39,280 bases of DNA, from positions 1 to 39,280 of IMG/VR virus record IMGVR_UViG_3300030061_002149. One strand, 5' to 3'. Origin of the DNA: a virus. Positions 46 to 38,847 of the stretch are shown here, one piece after another (position 1 is the first letter of the stretch; each line of letters starts with the position of its first letter). Both the position numbers and the translations under genes were made by a program. Under the pieces are notes generated by a model. It saw only the letters and a program-made list of their open reading frames with translations, searched no databases and was not told where the DNA came from.

Positions 46-2346
46 CTAGGCGATACCAGCATCAGATAGACGCTGTTTAAGAGTTTCAATTTCTCCAATT
101 GCTTCTTTCAATGCAGCAGTCAGCAACGGTACAAGCTTGGATTGGTCAATGCCTTGCATATCTTCGCCATCCTTTTCACCAGTAACTGCTTCTGGTACGA
201 CGGTTTGTGCTTCGTGAGCAAGGAAACCATCGACTGTTGTATCAGCGTCAGCAATGAAGTTAAAACGCCTTGGTGATAATTGTTTGACACGAGTGATGCC
301 GTCAGCAATATCAACAACGTTTTCTTTTAAGCGGTAGTCAGAAGAAGTGTTATAAGAAGTAGAAGTTCCGCTAGTGGCAATTGAACCCACTTGCCCATTT
401 GAATTACTAAAAATTGCTACTGGTACGTTACTTGAAGTGGTAGAGGACGCTATTAGAGTCCGCCGTCCACTTGATTCTGCCAGAAAAGCAACTCCTCCAG
501 TTCCGCTAACAGGGTTAGAAGTACAGCCTATAAATACGCTGCCCGAGCTATCAATTCGCATCCGCTCGGTACTATTAGTTGCGAATGCAAGCGTATTAGC
601 AGCAGGTGAAACAAAACCGTTTCCAAGACCACTTACATTGCCATAGTTATCTCGGACAGAAAATCTATTTGCTTCAATAGTCCCAGCTGTGGAGCTTGCA
701 TTATGTACGGTTAGTTCGTGTGTAGGCGACGTTGTCCCAATCCCAACATTTCCCGAGGTGTCGATACGCATCCGCTCGGTATTATTTGTTCTAAAGCAAA
801 AACTATTACCGAGAAGAGTCCCAATGTAAACCTGGTGCTCAACCCCGGGATTTAGAACACCAAAACGTGCCACACGAGAACCATTTGCCTCCAGTTCAAT
901 ACCTTTATCTGCTGAGGCAGCTTTGACAATTACAGTGCCAGAGCTGTCGATTCGCATCCGCTCGGTAGAAGAGGTTGAAGCACCAGTTGTTCGAAAACGA
1001 ATGTCATCAGTGCCACTGCCTCCTCCAAATAAAATATTGCCACCAGGATTTGTTGCGCCACCCTGAATTTGTAAAGTGCCAGTAGAACTAGCACCTTTTA
1101 CAGCATTTGCAGGTCCTAACACAATATTGCCATCTACTTCTAATTTTTCTATGAGACTAGAAACGCCAATCCCAACTCTGCCCGAGCTGTCGATTCGCAT
1201 CCGCTCGGTATCGTTATTTGTGTAGGCAATAATGCTTCCATTCGTACTTGCAGCATGAATGCCGATATCGTTAATTTCACTACCTGTAGGATTAGAACTA
1301 ATTCGTGTATTAGCTGTAGCAGTCGTGCTGTTGTAAAGTGAGATTACACCGCCAGTTGTTCCATTAGCGACAGCTAAAACTTGCCTGCTTCCAAAAGCAA
1401 CTGCATTTGTCGTGCCCAGCAACATTCTGCCACTTGAGTCGACCCTGAATCGCTCCGTCGGAGAAGACGCACCATCAGCGGTTGTGTAAAAAAGTAAAGC
1501 GCCGGGTTTATCATTTGCACCTGATGCCCCATCAGCAATACAAGTAATCCTGCCATGTTCTTGTTTGCTGCTACCTGCATTACTATAAAAACGAATTAGC
1601 CCAAGGCTATCTGCATTGCTAACAGACGAATTATCTCTATAGAGCACCATATTGGCACCGGCTGATGCCGCAAGTTGCACAAGTGCATTAGAAGTGTCGA
1701 GAACTGCACTAGACGTTCCCATCAATAGCCTGCCCGAGCTGTCAACAGTGACGCGCTGCGCTCCACCCGTTGCAATCGCTAACGAATCCGCTCCAGGTTG
1801 AAATAAACCACTATTTACATCGCCATTAAATACAAGTGCAGGCGCTCCCGCTGTTCCTGCTGTCAGATTTAAAGCCTGATTGAATGTCCAGCAATCAGTA
1901 CTATTAACCCAAGTAAGAGTTTTGTCAGTTGCGCCCTTTAGCGTGATGCCACCGCCATCAGCTGTCGTATCAGTTGGCGTTGAAACAACCGCAATCTCAA
2001 TGTTCTTATCCTTAATCGACAGCGTGTTGCTTGAGACTGTTGTCGTCGTTCCATTAACAGTCAAATCTCCCTGGATCGTTGTATTGCCAGACGCATCAAT
2101 TAATAGGCGCTGCGTTCCACCAGTCGTAACCGCAAACTGATTTGCCCCAGGGCTGTATATCCCTGTATCAAGGTCGCCAGTAAAGGCAAAACTGGGTAGC
2201 GCCTCCGTTCCAAGGCCAAACTTTTTAAGCAAATCCTCAACCTTGACCTTTTTGGTCTGATCGTTGACCAAGTCAACAATCGGCAAAACGTCAGTGGCGA
2301 CCGGATCCGTATAAGCGGTCAGCCCAGAAATTTTGACGTTTGCCAT
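46..2346 (-). CDS. Tail fibre with C-terminal S74 self-cleaving chaperone domain
   Basis: This 766-residue protein is likely a receptor-facing tail fibre. The N-terminal 50 residues resemble phage fibre attachment segments. The shaft holds seven modules, each built round a TERMRIDSSG-like motif followed by a G-I-G-T-like turn. The last 98 residues form an intramolecular chaperone of the endosialidase type (peptidase S74): it starts at S669-D-Y-R-L-K674 and carries H711, matching the Ser, Lys and His known to drive autocleavage in that family. In the family, the domain trimerises the fibre and is then released. The C-terminal coiled coil (about 745-762) fits. It is the last gene of the minus-strand structural operon, 24 bases after the next fibre gene. 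The function call is firm; the receptor is unknown. Confidence 0.85.
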   Translation of the reverse strand: MANVKISGLTAYTDPVATDVLPIVDLVNDQTKKVKVEDLLKKFGLGTEALPSFAFTGDLDTGIYSPGANQFAVTTGGTQRLLIDASGNTTIQGDLTVNGTTTTVSSNTLSIKDKNIEIAVVSTPTDTTADGGGITLKGATDKTLTWVNSTDCWTFNQALNLTAGTAGAPALVFNGDVNSGLFQPGADSLAIATGGAQRVTVDSSGRLLMGTSSAVLDTSNALVQLAASAGANMVLYRDNSSVSNADSLGLIRFYSNAGSSKQEHGRITCIADGASGANDKPGALLFYTTADGASSPTERFRVDSSGRMLLGTTNAVAFGSRQVLAVANGTTGGVISLYNSTTATANTRISSNPTGSEINDIGIHAASTNGSIIAYTNNDTERMRIDSSGRVGIGVSSLIEKLEVDGNIVLGPANAVKGASSTGTLQIQGGATNPGGNILFGGGSGTDDIRFRTTGASTSSTERMRIDSSGTVIVKAASADKGIELEANGSRVARFGVLNPGVEHQVYIGTLLGNSFCFRTNNTERMRIDTSGNVGIGTTSPTHELTVHNASSTAGTIEANRFSVRDNYGNVSGLGNGFVSPAANTLAFATNSTERMRIDSSGSVFIGCTSNPVSGTGGVAFLAESSGRRTLIASSTTSSNVPVAIFSNSNGQVGSIATSGTSTSYNTSSDYRLKENVVDIADGITRVKQLSPRRFNFIADADTTVDGFLAHEAQTVVPEAVTGEKDGEDMQGIDQSKLVPLLTAALKEAIGEIETLKQRLSDAGIA
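544..1210 (-). repeat. Near-identical 27-bp repeats inside the tail-fibre gene
   Basis: Four copies of a roughly 27-bp stretch with core TCGCATCCGCTCGGTA or a one-base variant lie at about 544-571, 752-780, 941-967 and 1181-1210. They encode the T-E-R-M-R-I-D-[ST]-S-G motif at the edge of each shaft module. Three more diverged copies lie at about 1431-1461, 1731-1762 and 2090-2118. The four leftmost copies are much closer in DNA sequence than the protein motif requires, which suggests recent duplication or exchange between modules. Confidence 0.8.
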
Positions 2347-2370: not shown

Positions 2371-3471
2371 TTAAGACCAAGTGCCAATCGCCACTCGTTT
2401 CCAAGTGTTCGTGGCAGTGCAAACGTAGATGTAGTTTGCGTCCCATGTCACCTCACCCAACGTTCCAGCAGCCGTAGCTGACGCAGGAGTATGAGTTGGC
2501 AAAATAGGCCGTGACCCTAACGTCACATTTGCAGCAGTGATCGCTGCCATGCTCGTTAACGTCCCAGCAGCTTTAACCTTCAGATCAAGCTTTCCATCTT
2601 CAGTTGTGTCGCTGGCATCAACAATGCTGGCCTCAAGTTCTGCAAATTGAATCTGCTCAGGCGTCGACGCATCGTTATTACCTTGGAAGTTGATGCTGCT
2701 CAGAACATCGTTGTCTTGACCCGCAACGGAGCTGCCACGGTGGTGATAAAGCGTAATGTCAGCGGCACTAACAGCAACAGCTTCTGCCGACTCAATAAAC
2801 AGGCCAGTGTTAGCCACTGATTCTGTGATGTGGAGCGGATGCTGTGGGTCAGATTCGTTGACGCCAACCTTGTCGCTTTTAAGCGTGATCCGAGCAGCTG
2901 TTGTGCCAGCGGCTGCAGTCATCAACTGCAGTATGCCGTCTTCACTAGCGTTAGTCGTATCAGCAATACGAGCCAGGATTTGCCCGTAACTGATGTCTTC
3001 ACTCGCGGCGTTACGACCACGGAACTCAAGATTGCCAAGGTTGTCATTGGCAGCAGGTGATGCAGAGTTGCGATACAACACCACATCTGGCGCAGTATCA
3101 AGCCCAGCATCAGTGTTCTCAATAATAACCTGATCAGTCGTATCGGTACTAAACAGATGCAATTGAGCTGCCGCCGTTCCAATGCCTAGCTGAAAACCTG
3201 CAGTCGTGAACTTTGCGACATAACTGCTGTTAGCAGTAATGGCAATCTCATTTGATGCGCTGCGATAGAAGCCAGTAACGCTTGAATCAGTCAGAAAGCT
3301 GATTGCTGGCGCAGAAGCTGATCCATCAGGGACTGCTTTATGAATCGTTCCAAACGTAATGCTCTTGTTTTTGTCAGCACTAGACGGTTGATCAATATCA
3401 ACAACAACAAAAGTATCGCCGGAGGCGGGCGATGTCAGGCTATTTAATTGTGAGATTTTGCGATTAGCCAT
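2371..3471 (-). CDS. Tail-fibre protein without chaperone domain
   Basis: This 366-residue protein starts like the fibre at 46-2346 (M-A-N-x-K-I-S-x-L) and holds a module of the form A-P-x-I-S-F-L-T-D-S-x-V-T-G-F-Y-R that also occurs in both neighbouring fibres. It then runs through repeated beta-rich segments, including two related stretches of D-V-V-L-Y-R / D-I-T-L-Y-H type. The C-terminal 40 residues (PTHTPASATAAGTLGEVTWD and on) resemble a small carbohydrate-binding or tip domain common at the ends of phage fibres. There is no S74 domain. The stop and start of this gene and the next upstream fibre share position 3471, so the two are translationally coupled. Probably a side or accessory fibre. 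Confidence 0.7.
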   Translation of the reverse strand: MANRKISQLNSLTSPASGDTFVVVDIDQPSSADKNKSITFGTIHKAVPDGSASAPAISFLTDSSVTGFYRSASNEIAITANSSYVAKFTTAGFQLGIGTAAAQLHLFSTDTTDQVIIENTDAGLDTAPDVVLYRNSASPAANDNLGNLEFRGRNAASEDISYGQILARIADTTNASEDGILQLMTAAAGTTAARITLKSDKVGVNESDPQHPLHITESVANTGLFIESAEAVAVSAADITLYHHRGSSVAGQDNDVLSSINFQGNNDASTPEQIQFAELEASIVDASDTTEDGKLDLKVKAAGTLTSMAAITAANVTLGSRPILPTHTPASATAAGTLGEVTWDANYIYVCTATNTWKRVAIGTWS

Positions 3472-4379
3472 CAGCCAGCCTCCAGGGTTTCAATGCGTGT
3501 TGTCAGTGCAGCAATCTCAGCAAAAGCTTCCTGCAACGCAGCAGTTAGAAGAGGAACCAATTTGCTCTGATCAATCCCCTGATAAACAGGATCGCCGTTG
3601 CTGTCAACCTCGTCTTTTGTGCCAGTAACGCATTCCGGAACGACAGTGGCAGCCTCGTGTGCCAAGAATCCATCAACCGTTGTGCCTGGAACGCTAATAA
3701 AATTAAAACGTTTGACTAACAGTTGGTTTAATCGTGTCTTTGCTCCAGTAAGAGCAACAACGTTTTGCTTCAAACGGTAATCAGAGCTTGTGTTGTAAGC
3801 AGTACTAGAACCTGTAACTGAAATCGTTCCAACAGCAGTTGTTGCGTAGTGGAAGCCAACAATGTTGCCGGTTGATGTGTGGCGATTTAAACCAAGACAT
3901 TCACTAAAATTTCCAACGTTGATTCGGCCACTATCGGTAAATTGAATCCCGTCAGAGTTGTTAAGTACAGGGTTGTTAGCTGTTTTCCATAACAACGATG
4001 GCCCGCCATTGTTAGTGTCAAGGGCTCCACCGATGATCATTCGTTTTGTGGCATTGGTTGAGAAACCAATGGTGTCAGCCTCAGGACGATAAATTCCTGT
4101 ATTTGTGTCGGATGAAAAATTAAGGCTTGGAGTACCTACCGCGCCATCAGCAATATTGAATGATCCGTCAAGGCCACGAAGGGTTATAAACCCATCGTTT
4201 GCTTTTGTGCGAATTTTAAGCTGATCATTGCCGGTATCTGCCCAAAGCTGACAAGGAAAGGTAGTCGATGGAGCTGTGTCGCCGCTGTTGGTCGTAAAGG
4301 CAGCGGCTAACTGATTGTTAATGTCAGTCCTTACGGCTGCTCCGCTGCCATTCGCTACAACTCCATCCGCCTGTGCCAT
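3471..4379 (-). CDS. Second S74-type tail-fibre protein
   Basis: A 302-residue fibre protein. The N-terminal 90 residues form a structural segment, followed by one fibre module (T-P-S-L-N-F-x-x-D-T-N-T-G-I-Y-R-P). The C-terminal 104 residues are an S74 intramolecular chaperone with S199, K204 and H241 in the same spacing as the 766-residue fibre (Ser +5 Lys, +42 His). The chaperone domains of the two fibres are clearly homologous (shared DGFLAHEA and GIDQSKLVPLLTAAL), so one gene probably arose by duplication or both were acquired from related fibres. It starts 8 bases after the stop of the J-like gene, so it belongs to the same transcript. Confidence 0.85.
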   Translation of the reverse strand: MAQADGVVANGSGAAVRTDINNQLAAAFTTNSGDTAPSTTFPCQLWADTGNDQLKIRTKANDGFITLRGLDGSFNIADGAVGTPSLNFSSDTNTGIYRPEADTIGFSTNATKRMIIGGALDTNNGGPSLLWKTANNPVLNNSDGIQFTDSGRINVGNFSECLGLNRHTSTGNIVGFHYATTAVGTISVTGSSTAYNTSSDYRLKQNVVALTGAKTRLNQLLVKRFNFISVPGTTVDGFLAHEAATVVPECVTGTKDEVDSNGDPVYQGIDQSKLVPLLTAALQEAFAEIAALTTRIETLEAG

Positions 4380-4387
4380 GACAAACC

Positions 4388-7300
4388 TTAAGCTTGCTGT
4401 GTTCCGTATCCTATCGCAGTGTACTGAAAATCTCGATTAACAACACGGGTGCCATTCTTAAACGTAATTGTAAAACCAGATCCTGTTGGTTCTGACATGA
4501 CGTAATAATCCCCAGCTCCAAGACCAAAGGCAACAATTCCGACAGTGACTTTAGTGTCGTTATCGGTGTAAAAAGCCTTGTCGAAAGTTACTGCTTTCCC
4601 AGACGCTGACGTTCCAGAAATTAAAGTTCCGCTGTTTTCAGTCCTGCGCTCAAATTGCACAGACACTCCTAGCTGATCAACTAATGGCGTTTGGTCAAGG
4701 TGCTCAGTGCTAAGGACAGCTTTGAATTGGAATGATCTGCCGACATAACCATTGTTTTCTAGCGGTATCCACTCTTCAAAAGCGAGCGTTGATTGCTGTA
4801 ACAAATTTGGGCACGCTTGGCCGCGAATCGTGCATAATCTTCCATTTGTTAAAACTGTTGCGGTCATCAAACTTTGAGCAGGACAATAATAAAAAAGCCC
4901 TGGCGCATTGTTGGCTACATTAATCTGTGTGTAAGCACCTGGTGATCCTGGCGTACCAACAACGGTAACGCCAGTTGTATATTCAGAGCCTCCGCCATGT
5001 GTTCCATTTGATGTTTCGCTAAATCTAAGCGAGAATCCTGAGTTGCTGGAATGAGACTGATCAAAAATATAAACGTTCCCTTCGTCCAAAGATTGCGCTG
5101 GGTTATTGATATTTGACCCGTCAAATCTAAACGCTTTTGGGGTCGGATTTCCGTCAGCGACTTGCACCGTAATTGTCACCGTGTCACCTTCAAGCTCAAT
5201 GTAACCGCTATCTTCGAAAACAATGCTGCCAGCAGCTTCCGCAGAATCAGACTTCCTAAAATAAACTTCAACGTTAGTGTCGTCAGGGATTAATCCGTCA
5301 AAGTCTGACCAGAGATCAATAAGCTCAGTGCGGTCGTCGATTAAATCGCTCTTATACAATCCTCTCGTAGTAAGAATGCGACTCAAGCGAACGTTATATT
5401 TCGCCCCAAGGTCGACTACTTTTTGGAATATATACTCCCCATCAGAGAACTGCGTTCCAAAATGACTGTCAATGTTGTCTGTAAAACCAGCAAGATCTGG
5501 TATGGCGTCAAACGACGCATCCCCGTCAAAGATCAACCCGTCGTAAGTATCGCTGTAAACAACATTGTTCTTTTGCCCAGGAAACTCGCCAGGTGAGGCG
5601 TCTTCACGAGTTACTTCATAGTTGTATTTAGGCAATGCGTCTGGAACATTAATAATTGCACTAGCAGCATTGGCGCTACGTTGCTTTTGGTCATTAACAA
5701 ACTTGACAAGATATTCTCCATTTAGCAGCGGCAAAACAACAGAAGTTGTTCTAGCCTCAACGCTGCGAAGCAAAACACTGTTCGGCCATGATCCGCTGCC
5801 GTCCGTTTTTGAATTATGTCGAATTTGTGCAACAAAACTTTCAAGCTTTTGACCGCTTGCTGTTGCTGCCCAACTTAAAACAACTTGATCAGCGCCAATA
5901 AGTTCAATTTGTACGTTCTCCGGATCAGGAGGCAGAACAACAATGGCTAGACCGTCTGATGTATCACTCGTTCCACCAACACCAATAACCCTATTGGCGA
6001 ACACAGCATCGGACTGCCTGCGATCTGGGTCAGGGCCAATAGCCCTAACCTCAACATACAAACGCTTGCCAGTGGCCAAGTTAGTGTTGATGTCAATCGA
6101 ATTATCAGAAGTAGTAACAGTTGTGTAATTGCCACCTAAGCCAATTTTGTGCCTTACTTTAAATTCAACGGCTGAAGCGGATAGCCCTCGGGTCCACGAT
6201 ACTGTGGCACGGTTTGTTGTATTACGACCATCGTCTATTTGCTGGAACGCAATCGCTAAATTTTGCGGACTTGCAGGCTTGCCGCCATAAACAGATGGAG
6301 AAGGCAGGGCAAGACTTGCGTCCAAGTCATCAACAATGTTGTAAATACCGTCAACATGTTTAACTCCAATAATGCTATAAATTCCACCCTCACCTTCTCC
6401 GACAGAAAGGCAGCGATATTTATTTAGAACAACTGAGTCATTTTTAATTGCATATAACGCATTATCCGGCGGCGGCTGAGTGAAAGGGCTTGAAAGGGTT
6501 ACCTTGACGCCACTGACGCTTGCAATGGCTTGGGTTTCTACCGTTCCATCAGCCATCACAACGGTCAGCTTGTTGCTTGACCCAGCAGGCAATACTGCTG
6601 TTTGGTCTAAATTCACAAAGTCACGAGTTGCCCCAACGACCCTGCCCGCAAGTCGCGTGGCAAGCCGCATTTCGTCAGACACCTCAAAGACCTGACCAGG
6701 CAATACGTTTAAGCCCTCAAGGCCAACAGAAAAAGTAATCGTTTCGTCATGCAGCTTTTCAGACTGCATAACCCAACGTCCCATACGCTGTGCTTGGTAC
6801 TTAGACGTGCAGCCAAACGCAACTACGCTTTTTTCTTGTATGCCATACTTTTCAATTAAAGCCTGGTCTTCAATGATAATAAAGTTGGATTTGTAGAAAT
6901 TGTCTGGATCGTTGTAGCGAACACGAACCCTGGTACTACGAGTCTTGAGAGATGAACCGTTATAAACAAAACTACCATTGACAACATTTGAGTTGCTAAA
7001 GACATGGATAGCATCAACATTTTGTTTGTCTAGCTCACCATGGTCTGCAGCAAGCTGTACGTTATCTGCCTTCCAGAACACCATGCCACGAAAGACGCTA
7101 GCCATGTCTTGTATGACGCTATAAGCTTCCGCCTGCGACCCAATAACAGTATTGATTGCAAAGCGTGGCTCTGTTCCGTCCGGTGTAGTGACTAGTTCAT
7201 TGCAGTACCTAGCAATATCAATCAAATCAACCCAGTTTAAATTTGCTTGATCAATAAAATCACCAGCGCCAAATCGGGTGTTGGTAAGCATGTTGTAAAA

Positions 7301-19561: not shown

Positions 19562-19635
19562 TTTTTCTTGCCTCCTTTTTTCTTCTTTTTAGAAGCAGTC
19601 GTCTGGGGCTTTTTGGGTCCGGAATAACGAGGCAT
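19558..19635 (-). CDS. 25-residue lysine-rich peptide
   Basis: A mini-gene from ATG 19635 to TGA 19558. Ten of its 25 residues are lysine, arranged as K-K, a run of five and a final run of three. It has the best Shine-Dalgarno sequence of the region (AAGGAGG, 6 bases before the ATG), and its ends overlap both neighbours (TGATG upstream, GTGA downstream), which argues for real translation in a chain. Function is unknown; such polycations can neutralise packaged DNA or bind RNA. Confidence 0.55.
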   Translation of the reverse strand: MPRYSGPKKPQTTASKKKKKGGKKK

Positions 19636-19748
19636 CAGGATTCCTCCTTAGCTTCTGCTTTCTTGGCTACAGCTTTTTTAGCTGCAGGTTTGGCCTTCTT
19701 CTCTTCGCCCGGAAGCGTAAGTTGAAATCTGCTATGAAGCTTTGCCAC
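19635..19748 (-). CDS. 37-residue Lys/Ala-rich small protein
   Basis: The frame runs from GTG 19748 to TGA 19635, whose last base is the A of the next ATG. The first part is V-A-K-L-H-S-R-F-Q-L-T-L-P-G-E, then a Lys-Ala histone-H1-like tail (P-A-A-K-K-A-V-A-K-K-A-E-A-K). An in-frame stop lies a few codons before the GTG, and no ATG is available, so the start is the weak point. Likely part of the same coupled set as the 25-residue peptide and the Tudor-like protein. Confidence 0.45.
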   Translation of the reverse strand: MAKLHSRFQLTLPGEEKKAKPAAKKAVAKKAEAKEES

Positions 19749-19800: not shown

Positions 19801-19980
19801 TCAATCAACAGCAGGCTTCTTAGGTTTTTTTGTGTCGTCAACAAACTTGATGCCGTTTGCTGCTGCGAACTTTTCCATAAAATCTGGGTCTTCAGCCGTC
19901 AGCTCAGGCATGAAGTCAGGATCGACCTTCCCCATCTCGAGGGACATGCCAAACCTGTCGTCGCGTGACTCCTCAGCCAT
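19801..19980 (-). CDS. 59-residue acidic hypothetical protein
   Basis: The product starts at ATG 19980, which shares its first base with the stop of the head morphogenesis gene (TGATG). It is acidic, with two copies of D-P-D-F-M (about residues 20 and 31), and a lysine-rich end (D-T-K-K-P-K-K-P). I do not recognise a family. Coupling to the large head gene suggests a role in head assembly. Confidence 0.55.
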   Translation of the reverse strand: MAEESRDDRFGMSLEMGKVDPDFMPELTAEDPDFMEKFAAANGIKFVDDTKKPKKPAVD

Positions 19981-22190
19981 CAAAGCTGTTCTATCTCAAT
20001 AAACCAACGATACACCCCCTGGGAGGTTTTGTATTCGTCAATCTCCTCCTTCCTCTGGCTCTTGATTTTGTATTTAGCACCAGCAGGCTGTAAGACCTCG
20101 CCTTCTTCCTCAAATATGCTCTTAACATCGCCTGAAATGTCAACACCACGTTTGTTTTTCATAGACAAAATAACTTCATTATTGTTGCCATTAAGAAACT
20201 CTCGCTTCAACGTTGGATTCTTGGTCCAGCTTTCCATCGCTAAGGTCTCGTTGCCTGACTCAATTCCTTTGACAAGCTGCTCCAGCCTATTGTTATCCAT
20301 ATTCATTCCACGTTTTACGACGCCTTCATATTTGGGCCCGCCTTCTAAATATCCTTCCATCTTGGCAATTTTATTTCTTAACCCTTTTGGTGTCTTCTCA
20401 TAAACAGACACCTGAAAATCTTCGTAGTAGTTAAGCCCAACGCCTTGCTCTTTGGCCATCTTGAACTGTTCCGCACGCATCTTGCGGAAGTCACGACCAG
20501 ACCATGCTTCAATTTCTTCTTTAGGTGCTGTTGTTGATTTATACGTTTTTGATTGCTCTTTCAAGACCTTTTGATATTTGATTCTGCCTTCTTTCGATGC
20601 TTTTACGCTCGCATCAGCTTGTACTTTTGCTTTTAACTCCTGCAGCTCTGCAGATACTTTCTTGTATTTCGTTAATACGTCTTTAGATGGCTTGGCTTTG
20701 ACTAGCTCTGGCGTAAGGTTTTTTAACTCAGTTTGCAATGTTGCCAACCGTTTCTCAGAAGCAGCCAAAGGGGCGCTCGCTTGCGGTTTCAGTGTTTCTT
20801 TTAGTTCTTGTTCTAAGTTTTTAGCTTTTGCTTTGGCCGTGTCAGCCGCTGCTTTTGCTTTGGCAGTATTTTTCTTAGCTTCGTCAAGCTGTGCCTGAAG
20901 CTGTTTAGTTGTTTGAGGCTTAGGAGCAGGCTGTGGCTTGGGTTTAGGTGCAACCTTTGGTTTGGGTTTAGCTTTTGGCTTTGCTTTGATCTTTGATGGA
21001 TCGCCATAAGCCCTCTTTAAATCTTCAATTGTTTTCTCTGATCCGTCCTCACGCACAAAACGCCGGATCGCTCCATCAGGGCCGTACTTGCGCGACAACG
21101 CATTGAAGTAACCGACCTGACCTTGATCGCCAAGCACTTTTTCCTGCACAGCCTTCGGCTGCCGCTTCAGCCATGGGCCATAGTTCTCGCCATTTGGAAT
21201 GTTTTTGTCCCCACCTGGCCTGCCTAATTTGCTTGGTGGCGGTGGATCAAAACCAAGCTTTTCATAATCAACAATTGGAACTGTGGTTGATCTGCAGTTG
21301 AAATGCTGTGGTGGGATTGGCCCTTTGCCGTAAGGGTGCTCCGTACCATCCAAGGCTCTACAAACAGGGGAAGTCCTGCTGTCCAGAGTTGCTGTGTATC
21401 GATACTTTGTCGTGATGTCTTGGTTGGCCTCATAAGCTTTCATGCTCGCCGCGTTGGCTACTTGATTCACACTGGTGCGGACAAGCGTGCGAATTTGATT
21501 ATTGGCACGAACAGTTGACTCACCACCGGCACGAAGGATCTGAGAAATAGGCCCAGCGTCTCCTTCAGTCAAGCGACCTTTGAGCCTTCTAATAATTGAG
21601 TCTGTTGACTCACCCGTTAAAAACCCATTGCGAACTGCTTGGCCAAAAAACGCGGCCTCCTTTTGGGCCATGTTTGCAAACGAGTTTTTTAAGACCTGAC
21701 CGTTAGGCAGCGTCATCGTCACCCCATCAGCAACCGTGACCCTGACCACATCTTTGGCCCCTTTTACGGCGGCCTCTAAATCGTCGCTAAGTGAGACGAT
21801 CCCCTGTTGTGTTGGATCTGCTGTTGCTACAGCCTCAGCGAAACGCGGGCTAATCTCAACTGATCGGACTTGATTGCGAAATTCAAGCGGTATTGCTTCC
21901 CTTAGCTGTTCTTCAACAAAGCCAGCTTGAACGCCTGCCAATTCTTCCAGCTCTCGCACAGACAAAGCCGTGCTGTTTGACGCCCACTCGTTGAGGGATG
22001 TTTTTAATTGGCCCAACGTGGCCCTTAACCGTGCAGCTTTTGCAGGCGCAGAAACAGCATCAAGCCCAGCAAGGCGCTGAGCAGTATCCACAAGTAAATC
22101 GTTGTATGAAACGATGATCCGCTTAGCAACGCTGTTGCTATAGCGGTTGAGGTCGATGGCATTGCGGTAAAGCTCGGCGGGTGTGCTCAT
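19980..22190 (-). CDS. Mu F/SPP1 gp7-like head protein fused to an ADP-ribosyltransferase-like domain
   Basis: A 736-residue protein. Residues about 1-330 form the Mu gpF/SPP1 gp7-like minor head domain, with R-T-S-V-N-Q-V-A-N-A-A (238-248), Y-R-Y-T-A-T-L-D-S-R-T-S-P-V-C-R-A-L-D-G (262-281) and H-F-N-C-R-S-T (295-301). A long linker follows (about 400-560): Lys-Pro/Ala repeats, then coiled coil rich in Lys, Ala and Glu. The last 170 residues look like an R-S-E type ADP-ribosyltransferase: R627 (V-V-K-R-G), S654-W-T656 and E696-G-E698 followed by V-L-Q-P-A-G-A-K-Y-K-I, the usual order of the NAD-binding Arg, the STS motif and the catalytic E-x-E. Gp7-like proteins bind the portal and enter the head in few copies, so the enzyme could be delivered with the DNA. 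The fold call is strong from motifs; activity is inference. Confidence 0.8.
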   Translation of the reverse strand: MSTPAELYRNAIDLNRYSNSVAKRIIVSYNDLLVDTAQRLAGLDAVSAPAKAARLRATLGQLKTSLNEWASNSTALSVRELEELAGVQAGFVEEQLREAIPLEFRNQVRSVEISPRFAEAVATADPTQQGIVSLSDDLEAAVKGAKDVVRVTVADGVTMTLPNGQVLKNSFANMAQKEAAFFGQAVRNGFLTGESTDSIIRRLKGRLTEGDAGPISQILRAGGESTVRANNQIRTLVRTSVNQVANAASMKAYEANQDITTKYRYTATLDSRTSPVCRALDGTEHPYGKGPIPPQHFNCRSTTVPIVDYEKLGFDPPPPSKLGRPGGDKNIPNGENYGPWLKRQPKAVQEKVLGDQGQVGYFNALSRKYGPDGAIRRFVREDGSEKTIEDLKRAYGDPSKIKAKPKAKPKPKVAPKPKPQPAPKPQTTKQLQAQLDEAKKNTAKAKAAADTAKAKAKNLEQELKETLKPQASAPLAASEKRLATLQTELKNLTPELVKAKPSKDVLTKYKKVSAELQELKAKVQADASVKASKEGRIKYQKVLKEQSKTYKSTTAPKEEIEAWSGRDFRKMRAEQFKMAKEQGVGLNYYEDFQVSVYEKTPKGLRNKIAKMEGYLEGGPKYEGVVKRGMNMDNNRLEQLVKGIESGNETLAMESWTKNPTLKREFLNGNNNEVILSMKNKRGVDISGDVKSIFEEEGEVLQPAGAKYKIKSQRKEEIDEYKTSQGVYRWFIEIEQL

Positions 22191-22483
22191 TTTTCATAGA
22201 TGCCAAGGGCTTGAGGTTCTTCTATGCAAACAACAGAAGCATCAGCGCCAAGCTTTAAGGCGTTATCCAAGATTGACGTAAATTCTTCCACCACATCTTT
22301 GTCATAAGTCGCAATACTGCTTTCGGTCACGGCGCAAACCTTGCCGTCCAAATACCACGTCAGTCTGATGACTGCAAAATATTGATTGGCAAGCCTGTCA
22401 TGCGAATAAAAGAAATCTCGACTTGATGGTTGCTCTGATGGTTGTTCTGCCTTTGGTCTGCGCAAATCATCAAGCCACCCCAT
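22187..22483 (-). CDS. Hypothetical protein between portal and head protein genes
   Basis: A 98-residue protein that I do not recognise. A proline/serine-rich N-terminus (about 8-25) is followed by a compact alpha/beta part: Y-F-A-V-I-R-L-T-W-Y-L-D-G-K-V-C-A-V strands, a helix over E-E-F-T-S-I-L-D-N-A-L-K and a final V-V-C-I-E-E-P strand. The gene overlaps the portal gene by 14 bases upstream and the head protein gene by four bases (ATGA) downstream, so it is part of the packaging/head transcript. Confidence 0.6.
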   Translation of the reverse strand: MGWLDDLRRPKAEQPSEQPSSRDFFYSHDRLANQYFAVIRLTWYLDGKVCAVTESSIATYDKDVVEEFTSILDNALKLGADASVVCIEEPQALGIYEK

Positions 22484-23903
22484 CGGTTACCTCCGGTTCA
22501 CCTTCAGGCATTGTGACCTCTTGCTGCGGAACTGGCTGCGGTGTTTCAAGTAATCCGCCAGCCTGCGTTGCCTCAAGCTCGGCCTCAACATCAAAATCAT
22601 CGCCAAGCACTTCGCCCGCTTCAAGCTGTAACAGCAACGTTTCTTGTGTCACCGTGCCAGCGGTGTAAAGCTGCAACAACGCTTGAATCTCTTGTGGCTC
22701 AAGCCTTGCGCCCATAAAGTCACGATTGACAAGGCTGCTGCCAGCTTGTGACTCCTGCAGATAATCAGCATGGAACCGCAAGCAGTTGTCGATCATGTCT
22801 TGCATCTGCATAGCCACTTGCATCATCGTTGCATCGCCTTGACTGCGATCTATGCGCTTAGCCTCGGCCGTCTCACCCACAAGTTTTGCGCCCACCACAG
22901 CAGCTAAACCCAACTCGTTGATCTGCGACTCGATTTGTTCAAGCCTGCGAAACTGCGCGTCGTAGCTATTGCCAGCCGGTTCTACATATTCGGCCCTTGC
23001 ATCTGAGGGGAGTGCAAAAGCTTCTCCGGGACCGGCACTGATCTCTTCAGCAGACTGCGGGAAGCCAAACAACGCAAGCATCGGTACTGCGCTGATGTGC
23101 AATTGATTCCCAAGATCAGATTGCACTTGATAGTGCTGCAGGTTCAACTCTGCAATATCGGCCAACGGTGGGAACGACTCCAAAACGCCAATTCGGTTTG
23201 AATAGGCAACGCTGAACGGGATCTCGCTCAAACTTGTCGTGCCTTCATCAACAACACGGAAGTCACCTTTTTGATCTTTTTGAAAAATTTCAAATGCGCC
23301 AGGAGTCAAAACACGTACTTGTTCAACTTGCTTTTCGCCATACAATCCATCGGGCACGATGATCTTTTCAGAAAGACGAAGCTGCGTCAGCTCTTGTTTA
23401 CCGTCTTTAAGTTCTGAACGCCAGCCAATGATGTCGCGAGGAGAAATCGCAATCCAATATGGCCTTCCGTCTTCGCCAGCCTTGGGCGCATCAACAAGGA
23501 CACCGACGTGACCGTACCTCAGGCAAATCCTTGATGTAGAAAAAAGCCAGCTTTGTAGGTCGTTGCCCTGCAAATCAACGTCAAATAATTGCTCGCGAAT
23601 TTGATCAGTTACGTCGTCAAGCCTGACCGGTTTGCGGGTCAACATGCCCGCCAACATCCGCTCGATTCGAATTGTGAAAGGAGAACAAACGGATCGCTGG
23701 AGCCTGACGTCGTAGCTGGAATCTTGCTCTCTGGGCTCCTGCGGAAGATATTTTCTATGGCCTTTTCTTATTGCAAACGTCCCACCCTGCAATGCTTCTA
23801 ACAGTTCCCAGTGGGGCTCCATGTTTGCCCAAGCTGTGTTCGGGCTATCTACCGTCGTAACGTTGCCAACACGTTGGCGACCACCAGAAAAGCCTGAATA
23901 CAC
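22470..23903 (-). CDS. Portal protein, DUF4055 type
   Basis: At 477 residues the length fits phage portals. The N-terminal region (P-N-T-A-W-A-N-M-E-P-H-W-E-L-L, about 20-34; G-T-F-A-I-R-K-G-H-R-K-Y-L-P, 41-54; F-T-I-R-I-E-R-M-L-A-G-M, 76-87) matches, from memory, the DUF4055 family, which stands in the place of the portal in many siphoviruses. A crown-like tail with Gln/Glu-rich helices (about 400-450) and an acidic end complete it. It is the dodecameric ring through which DNA enters. It follows the large terminase by 27 bases. Confidence 0.75.
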   Translation of the reverse strand: MYSGFSGGRQRVGNVTTVDSPNTAWANMEPHWELLEALQGGTFAIRKGHRKYLPQEPREQDSSYDVRLQRSVCSPFTIRIERMLAGMLTRKPVRLDDVTDQIREQLFDVDLQGNDLQSWLFSTSRICLRYGHVGVLVDAPKAGEDGRPYWIAISPRDIIGWRSELKDGKQELTQLRLSEKIIVPDGLYGEKQVEQVRVLTPGAFEIFQKDQKGDFRVVDEGTTSLSEIPFSVAYSNRIGVLESFPPLADIAELNLQHYQVQSDLGNQLHISAVPMLALFGFPQSAEEISAGPGEAFALPSDARAEYVEPAGNSYDAQFRRLEQIESQINELGLAAVVGAKLVGETAEAKRIDRSQGDATMMQVAMQMQDMIDNCLRFHADYLQESQAGSSLVNRDFMGARLEPQEIQALLQLYTAGTVTQETLLLQLEAGEVLGDDFDVEAELEATQAGGLLETPQPVPQQEVTMPEGEPEVTDGVA

Positions 23904-36011: not shown

Positions 36012-36278
36012 ATGGCAGAAGAACAGGTTAAGCAAGAGCAAGAAAACGACAACTCACGTTTAGGTGATGTCATCAAGGTTGTTTTGCTTGCGTGGGCAAT
36101 GGCAATCTTGACGGCAAACTACCTTGGTGTGTTCAAGCAGTCACTAGACCCAACCTACCCAGCTTCCATTTTGAGTGGCACGGCAGCCTCTTTTGGCTTA
36201 GCTGTTGGTGGCAACAAAAAGTCCAAAAAAGAAGAGCCTACAATTAAGGAACAAACCCCTACGTCTAAACCCAAATGA
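36012..36278 (+). CDS. Two-helix membrane protein, holin candidate
   Basis: An 88-residue protein. A charged N-terminus (about 1-16) precedes hydrophobic helix 1 (V-I-K-V-V-L-L-A-W-A-M-A-I-L-T-A, about 20-36), a short loop, hydrophobic helix 2 (A-S-I-L-S-G-T-A-A-S-F-G-L-A-V-G, about 51-66) and a highly charged Lys/Glu/Pro tail. Size and topology fit class II holins, which time lysis by opening the inner membrane. Its stop overlaps the next ATG (ATGA), so it is made together with the exported proteins. Confidence 0.6.
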   Translation: MAEEQVKQEQENDNSRLGDVIKVVLLAWAMAILTANYLGVFKQSLDPTYPASILSGTAASFGLAVGGNKKSKKEEPTIKEQTPTSKPK

Positions 36279-36772
36279 GACGTTTTCTCTTTGTATCGTG
36301 CCTAACATTCTTTGCGATAAGTCCTGCTTCGGCAGACATTACGCACGCTATCAAGTCTTCAATTTCGCTAACTGTTGATGGAGCGGGATCAATCTCAACG
36401 CGCGTACCTTCTTCAGTGGCGGTATCTGGCTCTAACGTCACTTTGGGTACTGCTCCTACTTTGGGGACACTTACTTCCGGCACTGCTCTTGGCTACACTC
36501 CTGGTGCTTACAGTATTACTACTGCTGGTGACAGCTTTTCATATACAGAGTCGTACATAGAAGGTGATGACGTTCCAACCGTATTGTCTACGACTGTCAC
36601 TGCTGGGGTAGTTCCTGCTTTGCCAATCTTTGGCAATACAACAACAACTTCTGGCGGTGTTGCTGGTACTTTAGCTGGAACAATTGCGACTGATGGTGCA
36701 ATAGCGATTACAGCAGGGTCGGCTGGTACTACTGCGATTGGCCAAGTTATTCAGGAGCTGACTATCAAGTGA
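36275..36772 (+). CDS. Exported Thr/Ser/Gly-rich protein of marine cyanophage type
   Basis: A 165-residue protein. The signal peptide is M-R-R-F-L-F-V-S-C-L-T-F-F-A-I-S-P-A-S-A, cut before D21. The mature part is almost all Thr, Ser, Gly, Ala and Val with alternating pattern, so a beta-rich fold. Internal similarities include T-V-D-G-A-G-S and the closing G-T-L-A-G-T-I-A-T-D-G-A-I. I recognise, from memory, the same type in T4-like marine cyanophages, where its role is unknown. It overlaps the next gene by four bases. Confidence 0.65.
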   Translation: MRRFLFVSCLTFFAISPASADITHAIKSSISLTVDGAGSISTRVPSSVAVSGSNVTLGTAPTLGTLTSGTALGYTPGAYSITTAGDSFSYTESYIEGDDVPTVLSTTVTAGVVPALPIFGNTTTTSGGVAGTLAGTIATDGAIAITAGSAGTTAIGQVIQELTIK

Positions 36773-37188
36773 AAATCCTGCTGTTGTTGCTTTTGGCTGC
36801 CCCAGCAGTAGCCGTACCAATCGTTCCTAACTTCCAGCAAGGCACGCTTTCGAGCACAACAAAGACAACGTCCAAAGTTATTGAAGTCATCAACTCCTAC
36901 GAATATCGCACGGGTTATGAATACACAGCTAGCGGCACAAATATTCAGTCTTCTGGCGGGCTTGCCCCACAAAGCTTGACCACGACCACTAATACATTAA
37001 ACGGTGTTTCAAGTAAGTGGACTGGGCTTGATCCTGCATCTAGACCAACATGGAGCATCGTTAAGCCAGGCGCTGCTTTCTCCATAGTTGAGACTCTTTC
37101 TGGACCAGGGCTTACAAATCACACGATTATAAATAGAGAAACTGACATCGAATCACTTACGGAGACCACCAGCACCTTTACACAATGA
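36769..37188 (+). CDS. Exported protein of marine cyanophage type, second in operon
   Basis: A 139-residue protein with a very short, strong signal peptide (M-K-I-L-L-L-L-L-L-A-A-P-A-V-A, cut about 15/16). The mature part begins V-P-I-V-P-N-F-Q-Q-G-T-L and contains W-T-G-L-D (about 84-88) and repeated Thr-rich stretches. No cysteine remains after cleavage. The pattern F-Q-Q-G-x-L...W-T-G-L recurs in marine cyanophages by my recollection. No enzyme motif is visible. Coupled to both neighbours through ATGA overlaps. Confidence 0.65.
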   Translation: MKILLLLLLAAPAVAVPIVPNFQQGTLSSTTKTTSKVIEVINSYEYRTGYEYTASGTNIQSSGGLAPQSLTTTTNTLNGVSSKWTGLDPASRPTWSIVKPGAAFSIVETLSGPGLTNHTIINRETDIESLTETTSTFTQ

Positions 37189-37916
37189 AGCGTGTCTTAG
37201 CAGCCCTGCTGTTGTTTGCTGGGCCGGTAAATGCTCAGGTCTCAAGCACTGCCGCTCCAGTCGCAAACAGCAGTGGATCGGTTACAAACCAGGCTGTCCA
37301 GGTCGTTCCAAGCAAAACGTTCAACTCTGTGATTAATGGCGTCAGCTGCCAAGGTGCAACCCTGACGATCAACCCTTTTCTCAGCTCAACCACTGGCTGG
37401 TCTGATCCCTATGAACGCTATTACAACGAACCGGTTTACGACACTCTCGATTTAGTTGGTGCGACTGACCCAGAAGGCAATCCCGTTCCAGATGGCAGAC
37501 CTGATAATCCAGGTAACGTGCTGTTCTACAAGCCAGTCAGGACAGGCCAAAAAACAAACTTCTCAGTCAATGGCGGCATTACTGCACAGATCTCGATCCC
37601 ACTAGACCGCAGTCATATCCGCACTTGCCGCAAAGCAGCAGAAAAGCAAGTCGAGCTAATGGAAGCCAGCCTTGCCGATAAACGCCTTAATTACGAAATA
37701 GCTAGGTTGCGTAACTGCGCTGACCTGATGAAGGAAGGCGTGATGTTTCACCCCAAGAGTCCTTATGCGTCAATTTGTGCCGATGTCGTCTTAGTCAATC
37801 CGCCTGGCGTCTTGCCGCCCCACACACATTCAATCCCTACTTCTTCAAAGACCGCTGAAAACGCCGACGCTGCCAAGCTGACTCAACAAAGTCCTTCTTC
37901 CCAAGCTTCTCCTTAA
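37185..37916 (+). CDS. Exported protein with four cysteines, third in operon
   Basis: A 243-residue protein. The signal peptide is M-K-R-V-L-A-A-L-L-L-F-A-G-P-V-N-A, with cleavage near residue 17. The mature start V-A-N-S-S-G-S-V-T-N-Q-A-V-Q (26-39) and the later R-T-C-R-K-A-A-E-K-Q and R-N-C-A-D-L-M-K are recognisable in a family I know from T4-like marine cyanophages. C55, C148, C178 and C198 could form two disulfides outside the cytoplasm. A helical hairpin (about 145-185) lies near the end. The last 80 bases overlap, tail to tail, the minus-strand gene at 37837. Confidence 0.65.
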   Translation: MKRVLAALLLFAGPVNAQVSSTAAPVANSSGSVTNQAVQVVPSKTFNSVINGVSCQGATLTINPFLSSTTGWSDPYERYYNEPVYDTLDLVGATDPEGNPVPDGRPDNPGNVLFYKPVRTGQKTNFSVNGGITAQISIPLDRSHIRTCRKAAEKQVELMEASLADKRLNYEIARLRNCADLMKEGVMFHPKSPYASICADVVLVNPPGVLPPHTHSIPTSSKTAENADAAKLTQQSPSSQASP

Positions 37917-38592
37917 TTTTCTTGATCGTCTTTTTGACAAGGGGCTTGATCACCTTCAGCAAAATATCGCCTAATGGTTTGGCTAGAACTGCCGCTGTTG
38001 TTGCGACAACCGCAATCGTTGCAGTCGTGACCACAACAGGCGAGCCAGGTAAGTGGTTGCCGAGAATCGCTGGTATGTCCAACGACTTGAATTGCGGCTT
38101 GCATTCTCCATCGACACGCTTATAGCCAGTTATGACAGCAGTCTGAAGTTTATTTTTAGCTCCAATAGGTATTGCGTCTGGTGGCGGACATGGCAATTCC
38201 GTGTCTACATTCGGAATGTCAGCAGGTGCAGCTGCTGGCGGAGGGGACTTTACCGGTTGCTGGGAGGCTGCCGGTTTTTCTTTTGGGTTTATTGCTGGCG
38301 GCTTGGCTGATCCATAAGTCAACGTGCCAGGCGTAAAGTCCAGTGCTGCAGGAAACGATGGCATCGTTCCATCGCAAACCGTAAAGTTGCCTTTCGGGTC
38401 TGTCGTATAAGCATCTGCATTCCCAGGTTGAGTATTACGTGTCTCAACGCAGCCAGGCATATCCCCAACGGGAAAGCCAAGCATTAATGTGATTGGTGGC
38501 TCAGACGGAATGCTTTGCGGCGGGATACTTCTCCAGGTTGGTATTTCTGGAACGCCAATACGCCCCACACCAATCTCAGGTATTTCAGGCAC
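37837..38592 (-). CDS. Proline-rich membrane protein with basic tail
   Basis: A 251-residue protein from a GTG at 38592, just past the stop of the 83-residue gene. Residues 1-180 are Pro-rich, with four cysteines (48, 73, 135, 164). One hydrophobic helix lies at about 186-204 (V-V-V-T-T-A-T-I-A-V-V-A-T-T-A-A-V-L-A). The end (210-251) is strongly basic (I-K-P-L-V-K-K-T-I-K-K-I-K-E-K-L and R-R-R-F-Q-R). The cysteine-rich part is probably periplasmic and the basic tail cytoplasmic. Known to me as a conserved marine-cyanophage type, role unknown. Confidence 0.6.
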   Translation of the reverse strand: MPEIPEIGVGRIGVPEIPTWRSIPPQSIPSEPPITLMLGFPVGDMPGCVETRNTQPGNADAYTTDPKGNFTVCDGTMPSFPAALDFTPGTLTYGSAKPPAINPKEKPAASQQPVKSPPPAAAPADIPNVDTELPCPPPDAIPIGAKNKLQTAVITGYKRVDGECKPQFKSLDIPAILGNHLPGSPVVVTTATIAVVATTAAVLAKPLGDILLKVIKPLVKKTIKKIKEKLGKKDFVESAWQRRRFQRSLKK

Positions 38593-38595
38593 CTA

Positions 38596-38847
38596 TCAGA
38601 ACGGTGACTTAGGTAGCTCGAATGCAGGCTCAATGACAGGGCCTGTTGCTGATGGCAGTTCAGGCATCACGTCATCAATCTGACCTGGCACCATGTCAGT
38701 GACGAGTTTGGTTAGCTCAAGCTTTAGCTCACTCATGTAATACTTCGTCAGCGATGGGATGCGGGTGTAAAGCACCAACGTTCCAACAACCATTGCTCCA
38801 GACATCAGAAATGCTGTAGCGCCGAGCAGGTTAAAAACTTTTTGCAT
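38596..38847 (-). CDS. Small single-span membrane protein
   Basis: An 83-residue protein. The hydrophobic helix at about 5-27 (F-N-L-L-G-A-T-A-F-L-M-S-G-A-M-V-V-G-T-L-V) is followed by an amphipathic helix (Y-M-S-E-L-K-L-E-L-T-K-L-V) and a Pro/acidic tail. I recall the same plan next to the Pro-rich membrane protein in other marine cyanophages. It is first of the two-gene set after the terminator at 38859-38887, so it needs its own promoter; none was clear. Confidence 0.6.
   Translation of the reverse strand: MQKVFNLLGATAFLMSGAMVVGTLVLYTRIPSLTKYYMSELKLELTKLVTDMVPGQIDDVMPELPSATGPVIEPAFELPKSPF

What the first reader, a model, noticed from the sequence alone, without database searches (positions are those of the whole stretch)
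19980..20520. ADP-ribosyltransferase-like domain fused to the minor head protein
The last 170 residues of the Mu F/gp7-like protein hold R627, S654-x-T656 and E696-x-E698 with the sequence V-L-x-P-x-G-x-K-Y behind the E-x-E, the order and spacing of R-S-E class toxins and effectors. A Lys/Pro linker and coiled coil separate it from the head domain. Since gp7-like proteins sit in the head in few copies, the enzyme might be injected with the DNA to modify host proteins at once, as T4 Alt does. From general knowledge, ART domains on phage head proteins occur in other phages, but I know of no characterised case in a cyanophage.
Basis: partly seen in the sequence, partly recalled or inferred. Interest (0 to 1): 0.72.

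Follow-up and report, generated by a model that had tools for sequence, protein, structure and literature searches.

The report
Swappable enzyme on a phage head protein
A marine phage, probably of cyanobacteria, carries an ADP-ribosylating enzyme fused to a minor head protein; the enzyme and a small neighbouring gene form a cassette that related phages keep, lack, or replace with a protease of the same layout, which suggests phages trade virion-borne weapons together with matching antidotes.

Summary
In detail: the last 175 residues (562-736; window 19983-20507, minus strand) of the 736-aa MuF/gp7-like head protein form an ADP-ribosyltransferase (ART) domain. A model from 20 relatives (pLDDT 88) matches ART structures (Z up to 12.6). 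R627, S654, E696 and E698 are invariant in all 20. dN/dS is 0.03-0.12.

A 59-aa gene (19801-19980) starts on the MuF stop codon. Other phages with 97-98% identical MuF N-termini carry an HExxH metalloprotease instead. DNA homology stops at codon 412-416 and resumes in the last 8 bases of the small gene, so domain and small gene swap as one unit. The ART-type partner follows 31/31 ART cassettes, an unrelated partner follows 19/19 protease cassettes, and 72/72 short MuF genes have neither. ART and partner distances correlate at r=0.94, ART and backbone at 0.30.

Best reading: a virion-borne arginine-type ART effector with a cognate inhibitor, a MuF polymorphic toxin. ART-MuF fusions are known (Bxa, Enterococcus EFV). 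New here: marine, probably cyanobacterial, phages without a detectable integrase (MuF toxins were reported only from temperate phages) and direct evidence of cassette exchange. Injection, target and inhibitor role are inferred.

The parts
20991..22190 (-). MuF/SPP1 gp7-like head backbone, residues 1-400 (Phage_Mu_F domain at residues 184-303)
   Evidence: Pfam E=2.9e-13, TIGR01641 E=2.6e-16, PHROG head morphogenesis E=3.3e-78; 97-98% identical to backbones that carry other cassettes
20508..20990 (-). Lys/Pro-rich linker and helical-looking stretch, residues 401-561; the 5' exchange point lies at codons 412-416
   Evidence: blastn homology to metalloprotease-type relatives ends at window 20944-20958
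19983..20507 (-). ADP-ribosyltransferase domain, residues 562-736
   Evidence: AlphaFold2 pLDDT 87.9, pTM 0.82; Foldseek/VIA hits to ART structures; profile hits HopU1 1e-7 and Vis 9e-7; dN/dS 0.03-0.12
20310..20312 (-). R627, predicted catalytic Arg of the R-S-E motif
   Evidence: invariant in 20 homologues
20223..20231 (-). S654-W655-T656, the S-x-T/S motif
   Evidence: S and W invariant, third position T or S, in 20 homologues
20097..20105 (-). E696-G697-E698, the E-x-E motif with VLQP behind it
   Evidence: both Glu invariant in 20 homologues
19801..19980 (-). 59-aa partner gene, predicted cognate inhibitor; its ATG overlaps the MuF stop (TGATG); carries the family's conserved [DENQ]RF motif
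   Evidence: ART-type partner follows 31/31 ART cassettes and 0/72 short MuF genes; distances track the ART domain, r=0.94; RF motif in 15/15 distinct partners
19809..20943 (-). Whole exchange cassette: distal linker, ART domain and partner gene except its last 8 bases
   Evidence: no DNA homology to L016, L017, L018 inside, homology on both sides
19635..19748 (-). 37-aa gene shared by cassette-bearing phages; in many cassette-free relatives a homologue abuts or overlaps the MuF stop directly
   Evidence: downstream gene comparison

Best explanation
The MuF head protein carries a swappable virion effector. Shown by sequence and model: its C-terminus is an R-S-E / E-x-E ART, kept by purifying selection, and it travels with a small downstream gene as one cassette. 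Inferred: the ART (arginine-specific by its E-x-E motif) is built into the head at the portal, is held inactive in the producing cell by the small protein, enters the next cell with the DNA and ADP-ribosylates host protein at the start of infection. The small protein is a cognate inhibitor ('immunity'), which in a phage without an integrase would protect the virus-producing cell rather than a lysogen. Exchange of cassettes at the Lys/Pro linker and at the end of the small gene lets phages change effector type while keeping the head protein.
For: ART: pLDDT 87.9 model; VIA Z 12.6 to the ART chain of 6dre (an ART toxin/immunity pair), 12.1 to HopU1, 12.0 to Vis, over nearly the whole domain; Foldseek E down to 4e-7 in the PDB and to head proteins in the viral library; profile against PDB sequences HopU1 1e-7, Vis 9e-7; R, S, E, E invariant over 20 sequences; Pfam ART families match 14 and 11 of 20 members; dN/dS 0.03-0.12. 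Cassette: DNA breakpoints at codon 412-416 and in the last 8 bases of the partner gene; the reverse case, L013 and L009, has diverged backbones (42% and 61% identical) with nearly the same ART and partner. Partner: 31/31 ART, 0/19 metalloprotease, 0/72 short; Mantel r 0.94 versus 0.30 for the backbone. Virion: P-SS2 ORF030 by mass spectrometry (PMC2784084). Precedent: Bxa, a prophage MuF-ART neutralised by a small adjacent protein (PMC11699363).
Against: No assay. Inhibition by the partner is untested, and no complex could be modelled here. The window's ART alone hits no Pfam ART family. Distal ART relatives (L165-L170, P-SS2) lack a convincing same-strand partner of this family directly downstream; weakly similar antisense ORFs sit there. 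P-SS2 ORF032, which resembles one of these antisense ORFs (E 1.4e-7 in a 9-sequence set), was itself reported in virions with 1 peptide on average, which a pure producer-cell inhibitor would not predict. Whether the P-SS2 ORF030 peptides cover the ART part is not stated in the text read.
Confidence: 0.6

Rival explanations
1. Ordinary MuF polymorphic toxin of a temperate phage: the toxin harms competitors and the small gene protects lysogens.
For: Same anatomy as Jamet 2017 MuF toxins (PMC5576092) and Bxa. One ART-plus-partner contig, G008 (L044), has both tyrosine- and serine-type recombinase hits.
Against: No integrase or resolvase hit in the window, in other close relatives or in S-H1, KBS-S-2A, MED4-184, MED4-117; KBS-S-2A is described as possibly exclusively lytic (PMC3751600). 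Caution: the same search missed the published P-SS2 integrase, and several contigs are fragments.
Confidence: 0.2
2. The small protein is not an inhibitor but a chaperone, loading factor or co-packaged cofactor of the C-terminal domain.
For: Both cassette types tested have their own partner, as expected of a dedicated chaperone too; P-SS2 ORF032, a possible distant partner, was reported in the virion.
Against: Cassette-specific small genes directly behind the toxin gene are the typical immunity arrangement (PMC5576092, PMC11699363).
Confidence: 0.2
3. The ART works inside the producing cell or on the virion itself (for example modifying portal or head proteins) and is not an injected effector.
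For: Encoded in the late head module; Iyer 2022 raises an alternative in which head-linked ARTs counter immune processes that target the packaging apparatus (PMC9503650).
Against: Most close relatives found have a 400-residue MuF and no cassette, and others replace it with a protease, so the ART is not needed for head assembly.
Confidence: 0.12
4. Degenerate ART retained as a structural or binding module without catalysis.
For: No enzymology; Pfam does not recognise the window's copy alone.
Against: Catalytic residues invariant in 20 sequences down to about 24% identity; dN/dS 0.03-0.12.
Confidence: 0.04

Closest known systems
MuF polymorphic toxins (Jamet et al. 2017, PMC5576092)
   Same: MuF N-terminus, exchangeable C-terminal toxin domain (ART and metallopeptidase are among the reported kinds), small ORF directly downstream, encoded near the portal gene
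   Different: Reported only from temperate phages, mostly of Firmicutes, and none in phages predicted virulent; here marine phages related to cyanosiphoviruses with no integrase found
Bxa with Bsi/BAH (Bacteroides stercoris prophage, PMC11699363)
   Same: MuF-ART fusion with adjacent small genes, one of them a binding inhibitor
   Different: Prophage; has an ADP-ribosyl hydrolase as second immunity protein, none seen among the window proteins scanned; sequence kinship of the partner to Bsi was not tested
P-SS2 ORF030/gp030 (Prochlorococcus siphovirus)
   Same: MuF head protein with a homologous ART domain (32% identity, E=5e-13); present in the virion
   Different: 1499 aa with a Zeta-toxin-like domain as well; no clear same-family partner directly downstream
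Tre1/Tri1-type ART toxin-immunity pairs (PDB 6dre, 6drh)
   Same: Best structural match of the ART domain (Z 12.6, tied with HopU1 and Vis); ART paired with a cognate immunity protein
   Different: Linked to a PAAR-repeat protein rather than a phage head protein; the structure of the partner here was not compared
T4 Alt
   Same: ART carried in the phage head; T4-like RNA-polymerase ADP-ribosyltransferases are among the fold matches
   Different: From general knowledge and PMC9503650, Alt is a separate internal head protein, not a MuF fusion; no cassette exchange with a partner gene is known to me

Membership tests
ADP-ribosyltransferase superfamily, R-S-E clade | ART fold | tested here: met
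   pLDDT 87.9 model; the 50 VIA entries listed are ARTs or ART toxins, Z 10.4-12.6
ADP-ribosyltransferase superfamily, R-S-E clade | Arg on strand 1, S-x-S/T, (E/Q)-x-E in order | tested here: met
   R627, S654-W-T656, E696-G-E698; R, S and both E invariant in 20 homologues
ADP-ribosyltransferase superfamily, R-S-E clade | Curated family profile above cut-off | tested here: inconclusive
   Homologues L024 and L011 pass PF03496 and PF01129; the window's own copy does not reach E 0.01
ADP-ribosyltransferase superfamily, R-S-E clade | NAD+-dependent transfer to protein | not testable with these tools
   needs an enzyme assay
MuF polymorphic toxins | MuF N-terminal domain encoded next to the portal gene | tested here: met
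   Phage_Mu_F E=2.9e-13; portal at 22470-23903, one small gene between
MuF polymorphic toxins | Variable C-terminal domain on a conserved N-terminus | tested here: met
   ART, metalloprotease or no domain on closely related backbones; a kinase-like domain on a 45% identical backbone
MuF polymorphic toxins | Small downstream gene specific to the toxin domain | tested here: met
   31/31 ART, 19/19 metalloprotease, 0/72 short
MuF polymorphic toxins | Small gene confers immunity | not testable with these tools
   needs co-expression or binding assay
MuF polymorphic toxins | Association with temperate phages (reported correlate, not a mechanism) | tested here: inconclusive
   no integrase or resolvase in the window or most relatives; one ART-plus-partner contig has both; known P-SS2 integrase missed
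Virion-packaged injected effectors (T4 Alt-like) | Protein present in the virion | not testable with these tools
   published only for the distant relative P-SS2 ORF030 (PMC2784084)
Virion-packaged injected effectors (T4 Alt-like) | Enters the host cell and modifies host protein | not testable with these tools
   needs translocation and ADP-ribose proteomics

The most novel reading that the evidence does not exclude
Cassettes act as kin markers among co-infecting lytic phages: the inhibitor made in an infected cell protects that cell against ART delivered by later-arriving phages of the same type but not against a different cassette, so exchange of cassette plus inhibitor is driven by phage-phage competition rather than by lysogeny.
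Probability: 0.12. Interest if true: 0.85.

Novelty: new variant of a known kind. Interest (0 to 1): 0.6.

Why it matters
MuF toxins were described as a feature of temperate phages, with lysogeny offered as the reason. A toxin-plus-partner cassette exchanged between phages for which no integrase is found asks why such a phage would need an antidote, and makes that testable, since metalloprotease-bearing isolates of the group exist (MED4-184/P-HS2, MED4-117). It also provides a defined ART and partner pair from marine phages, probably infecting picocyanobacteria, for which effectors delivered at the start of infection are, to my knowledge, largely undescribed.

Tried and rejected
First AlphaFold2 job (15 sequences) gave only pLDDT 55.6 and was not used; adding distant homologues solved it. 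phmmer with the single ART sequence against PDB gave only a weak HopU1 match. The genome-contig scan found one locus, a contig labelled Gammaproteobacteria MAG with this same phage head gene, so no cyanobacterial prophage was found; the scan uses few peptide patterns and is not exhaustive. PF00589/PF00239 searches cannot prove a lytic lifestyle because the published P-SS2 integrase was missed and contigs are fragments. The partner matched no PHROG, Pfam or NCBIfam family and no phage record. The partner HMM scored the antisense ORFs beside L165, L166 and L168 highest in the region, but only weakly (E 0.01-0.3), so their homology is a lead, not a result. The partner HMM seeds came partly from the same loci that were counted; the zero counts in the other classes are the independent part. 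Counts are contigs, not independent evolutionary events, so the Fisher p-value is not relied on. The cassette tally depends on how loci were found and is not a frequency estimate: the 80 best backbone hits favour short MuF proteins.

Full report
Observation. The window is a 39,280-base virus record. ORF 19980-22190 (-) encodes 736 aa with a Phage_Mu_F domain at residues 184-303. The genome is related to cyanosiphovirus KBS-S-2A (terminase 75%, portal 70%, major head protein 70% identity), so a picocyanobacterial host is inferred, not shown.

The ART domain. The domain alone hits no Pfam ART family, but related cassettes do so above the curated cut-offs. A profile of 15 homologues finds solved ARTs first: HopU1 (1e-7), Vis (9e-7), then Tre1-type, XopAI and SpvB. 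A model built with 20 homologues has pLDDT 87.9 and pTM 0.82. VIA-align gives Z 12.6 (rmsd 2.6, 134 residues) to 6dre chain B, 12.1 (3.1, 147) to HopU1 and 12.0 (3.2, 143) to Vis. Foldseek agrees and, among viral proteins, finds head-morphogenesis proteins and T4-like RNA-polymerase ADP-ribosyltransferases. Thirteen positions are invariant over the 20 sequences, among them R627, S654, E696 and E698. Pairwise dN/dS of 0.03-0.12, where dS is not saturated, shows purifying selection.

The cassette. Loci L016-L018 share 97-98% of MuF residues 1-395 with the window but carry an HExxH domain instead of the ART. A profile of these domains matches lethal-factor-type zincins weakly, E 7e-5, and Pfam ATLF is below its cut-off, so 'metalloprotease' is a probable assignment. 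By blastn the DNA is homologous up to codon 412-416, then not until window 19808, the last 8 bases of the small downstream gene, then homologous again. L013 and L009 are the mirror case: backbones 42% and 61% identical, ART 96-97%, partner 90-93%. Seventy-two of the closest backbones are short, about 400 aa, without a cassette.

The partner gene. The 59-aa gene at 19801-19980 starts on the MuF stop codon. A profile of such genes, searched against six-frame ORFs of all loci, hits directly after ART domains; a second, unrelated profile hits directly after metalloprotease domains. By contig: 31/31 ART, 19/19 metalloprotease, 0/72 short. Distances of ART and partner correlate at r=0.94, ART and backbone at 0.30, and the partial correlation given the backbone is 0.94. 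All 15 distinct ART partners hold a [DENQ]RF motif. An arginine-bearing motif in a presumed inhibitor of an arginine-type ART could act as a pseudosubstrate; that is speculation.

Mechanism. Shown by sequence and model: ART fold, intact active site, selection, exchange as a unit with the partner. Published for a distant relative only: the MuF-ART protein is in the virion (P-SS2 ORF030, 96.5 peptides on average; PMC2784084). Inferred: assembly at the portal, silencing by the partner in the producing cell, injection, modification of host protein.

Comparison with the known. ART-MuF fusions and MuF polymorphic toxins are described (PMC5576092, PMC9503650, PMC11699363). Jamet et al. found toxin-bearing MuF only in temperate phages and none in phages predicted virulent. 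Here no integrase or resolvase was found in the window, close relatives or four isolates of the group, and KBS-S-2A is described as possibly exclusively lytic (PMC3751600), though KBS-S-2A itself has no cassette and the negative search missed the P-SS2 integrase. One ART-plus-partner contig with a different backbone (G008) has both recombinase types, so the cassette also occurs in an apparently temperate phage. No paper on MuF effectors of cyanophages was found.

Verdict. Ordinary in kind, new in variant: a member of the MuF effector-plus-partner kind, in marine phages probably infecting cyanobacteria, with unusually direct evidence of cassette exchange.

Noticed in passing
L016-L019, L053-L066; MED4-184 (L035), MED4-117 (L036): MuF proteins with an HExxH metalloprotease-like C-terminal domain and their own partner gene of about 63 aa, including two Prochlorococcus phage isolates; in MED4-117 the MuF gene is annotated as two overlapping ORFs.
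   Followed up: partly
L029 6462-8621, L030 10001-12160: MuF with a protein-kinase-like C-terminal domain (Pkinase E 8e-7, just under the Pfam cut-off) and a small ORF on the opposite strand at its 3' end.
   Followed up: partly
L165 4031-4246, L166 4666-4872, L168 1184-1345 (minus strand): In distant ART relatives a small RF-motif ORF lies on the opposite strand, convergent with the MuF-ART gene and overlapping its end; homology to the same-strand partners is weak.
   Followed up: partly
L034 (P-SS2) 2388-6887 and 7090-7275: P-SS2 gp030 combines MuF, a Zeta-toxin-like domain (E 1e-21) and an ART; gp032 downstream resembles the L168 antisense ORF and was reported in virions with 1 peptide on average.
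   Followed up: partly
G008 (L044), 25,059-base contig: ART-plus-partner cassette on a different MuF backbone in a contig with both tyrosine-type and serine-type recombinase hits.
   Followed up: no
L051 (PAFU01000001.1): A contig binned as a gammaproteobacterial MAG carries this same phage head gene with a 94% identical ART; probably a mis-binned viral contig.
   Followed up: no
L022 3761-4981: MuF of 406 aa that ends inside the Lys/Pro linker with no cassette, consistent with loss of a cassette.
   Followed up: no
window 36012-38847: Block of small genes matching PHROGs 721, 564, 650, 848 and 570 (unknown function) and 568 ('plasmid stability'), not shared with KBS-S-2A by tblastn.
   Followed up: no
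window 46-2346 and 3471-4379: Two tail-region proteins each with a Peptidase_S74 intramolecular chaperone domain.
   Followed up: no
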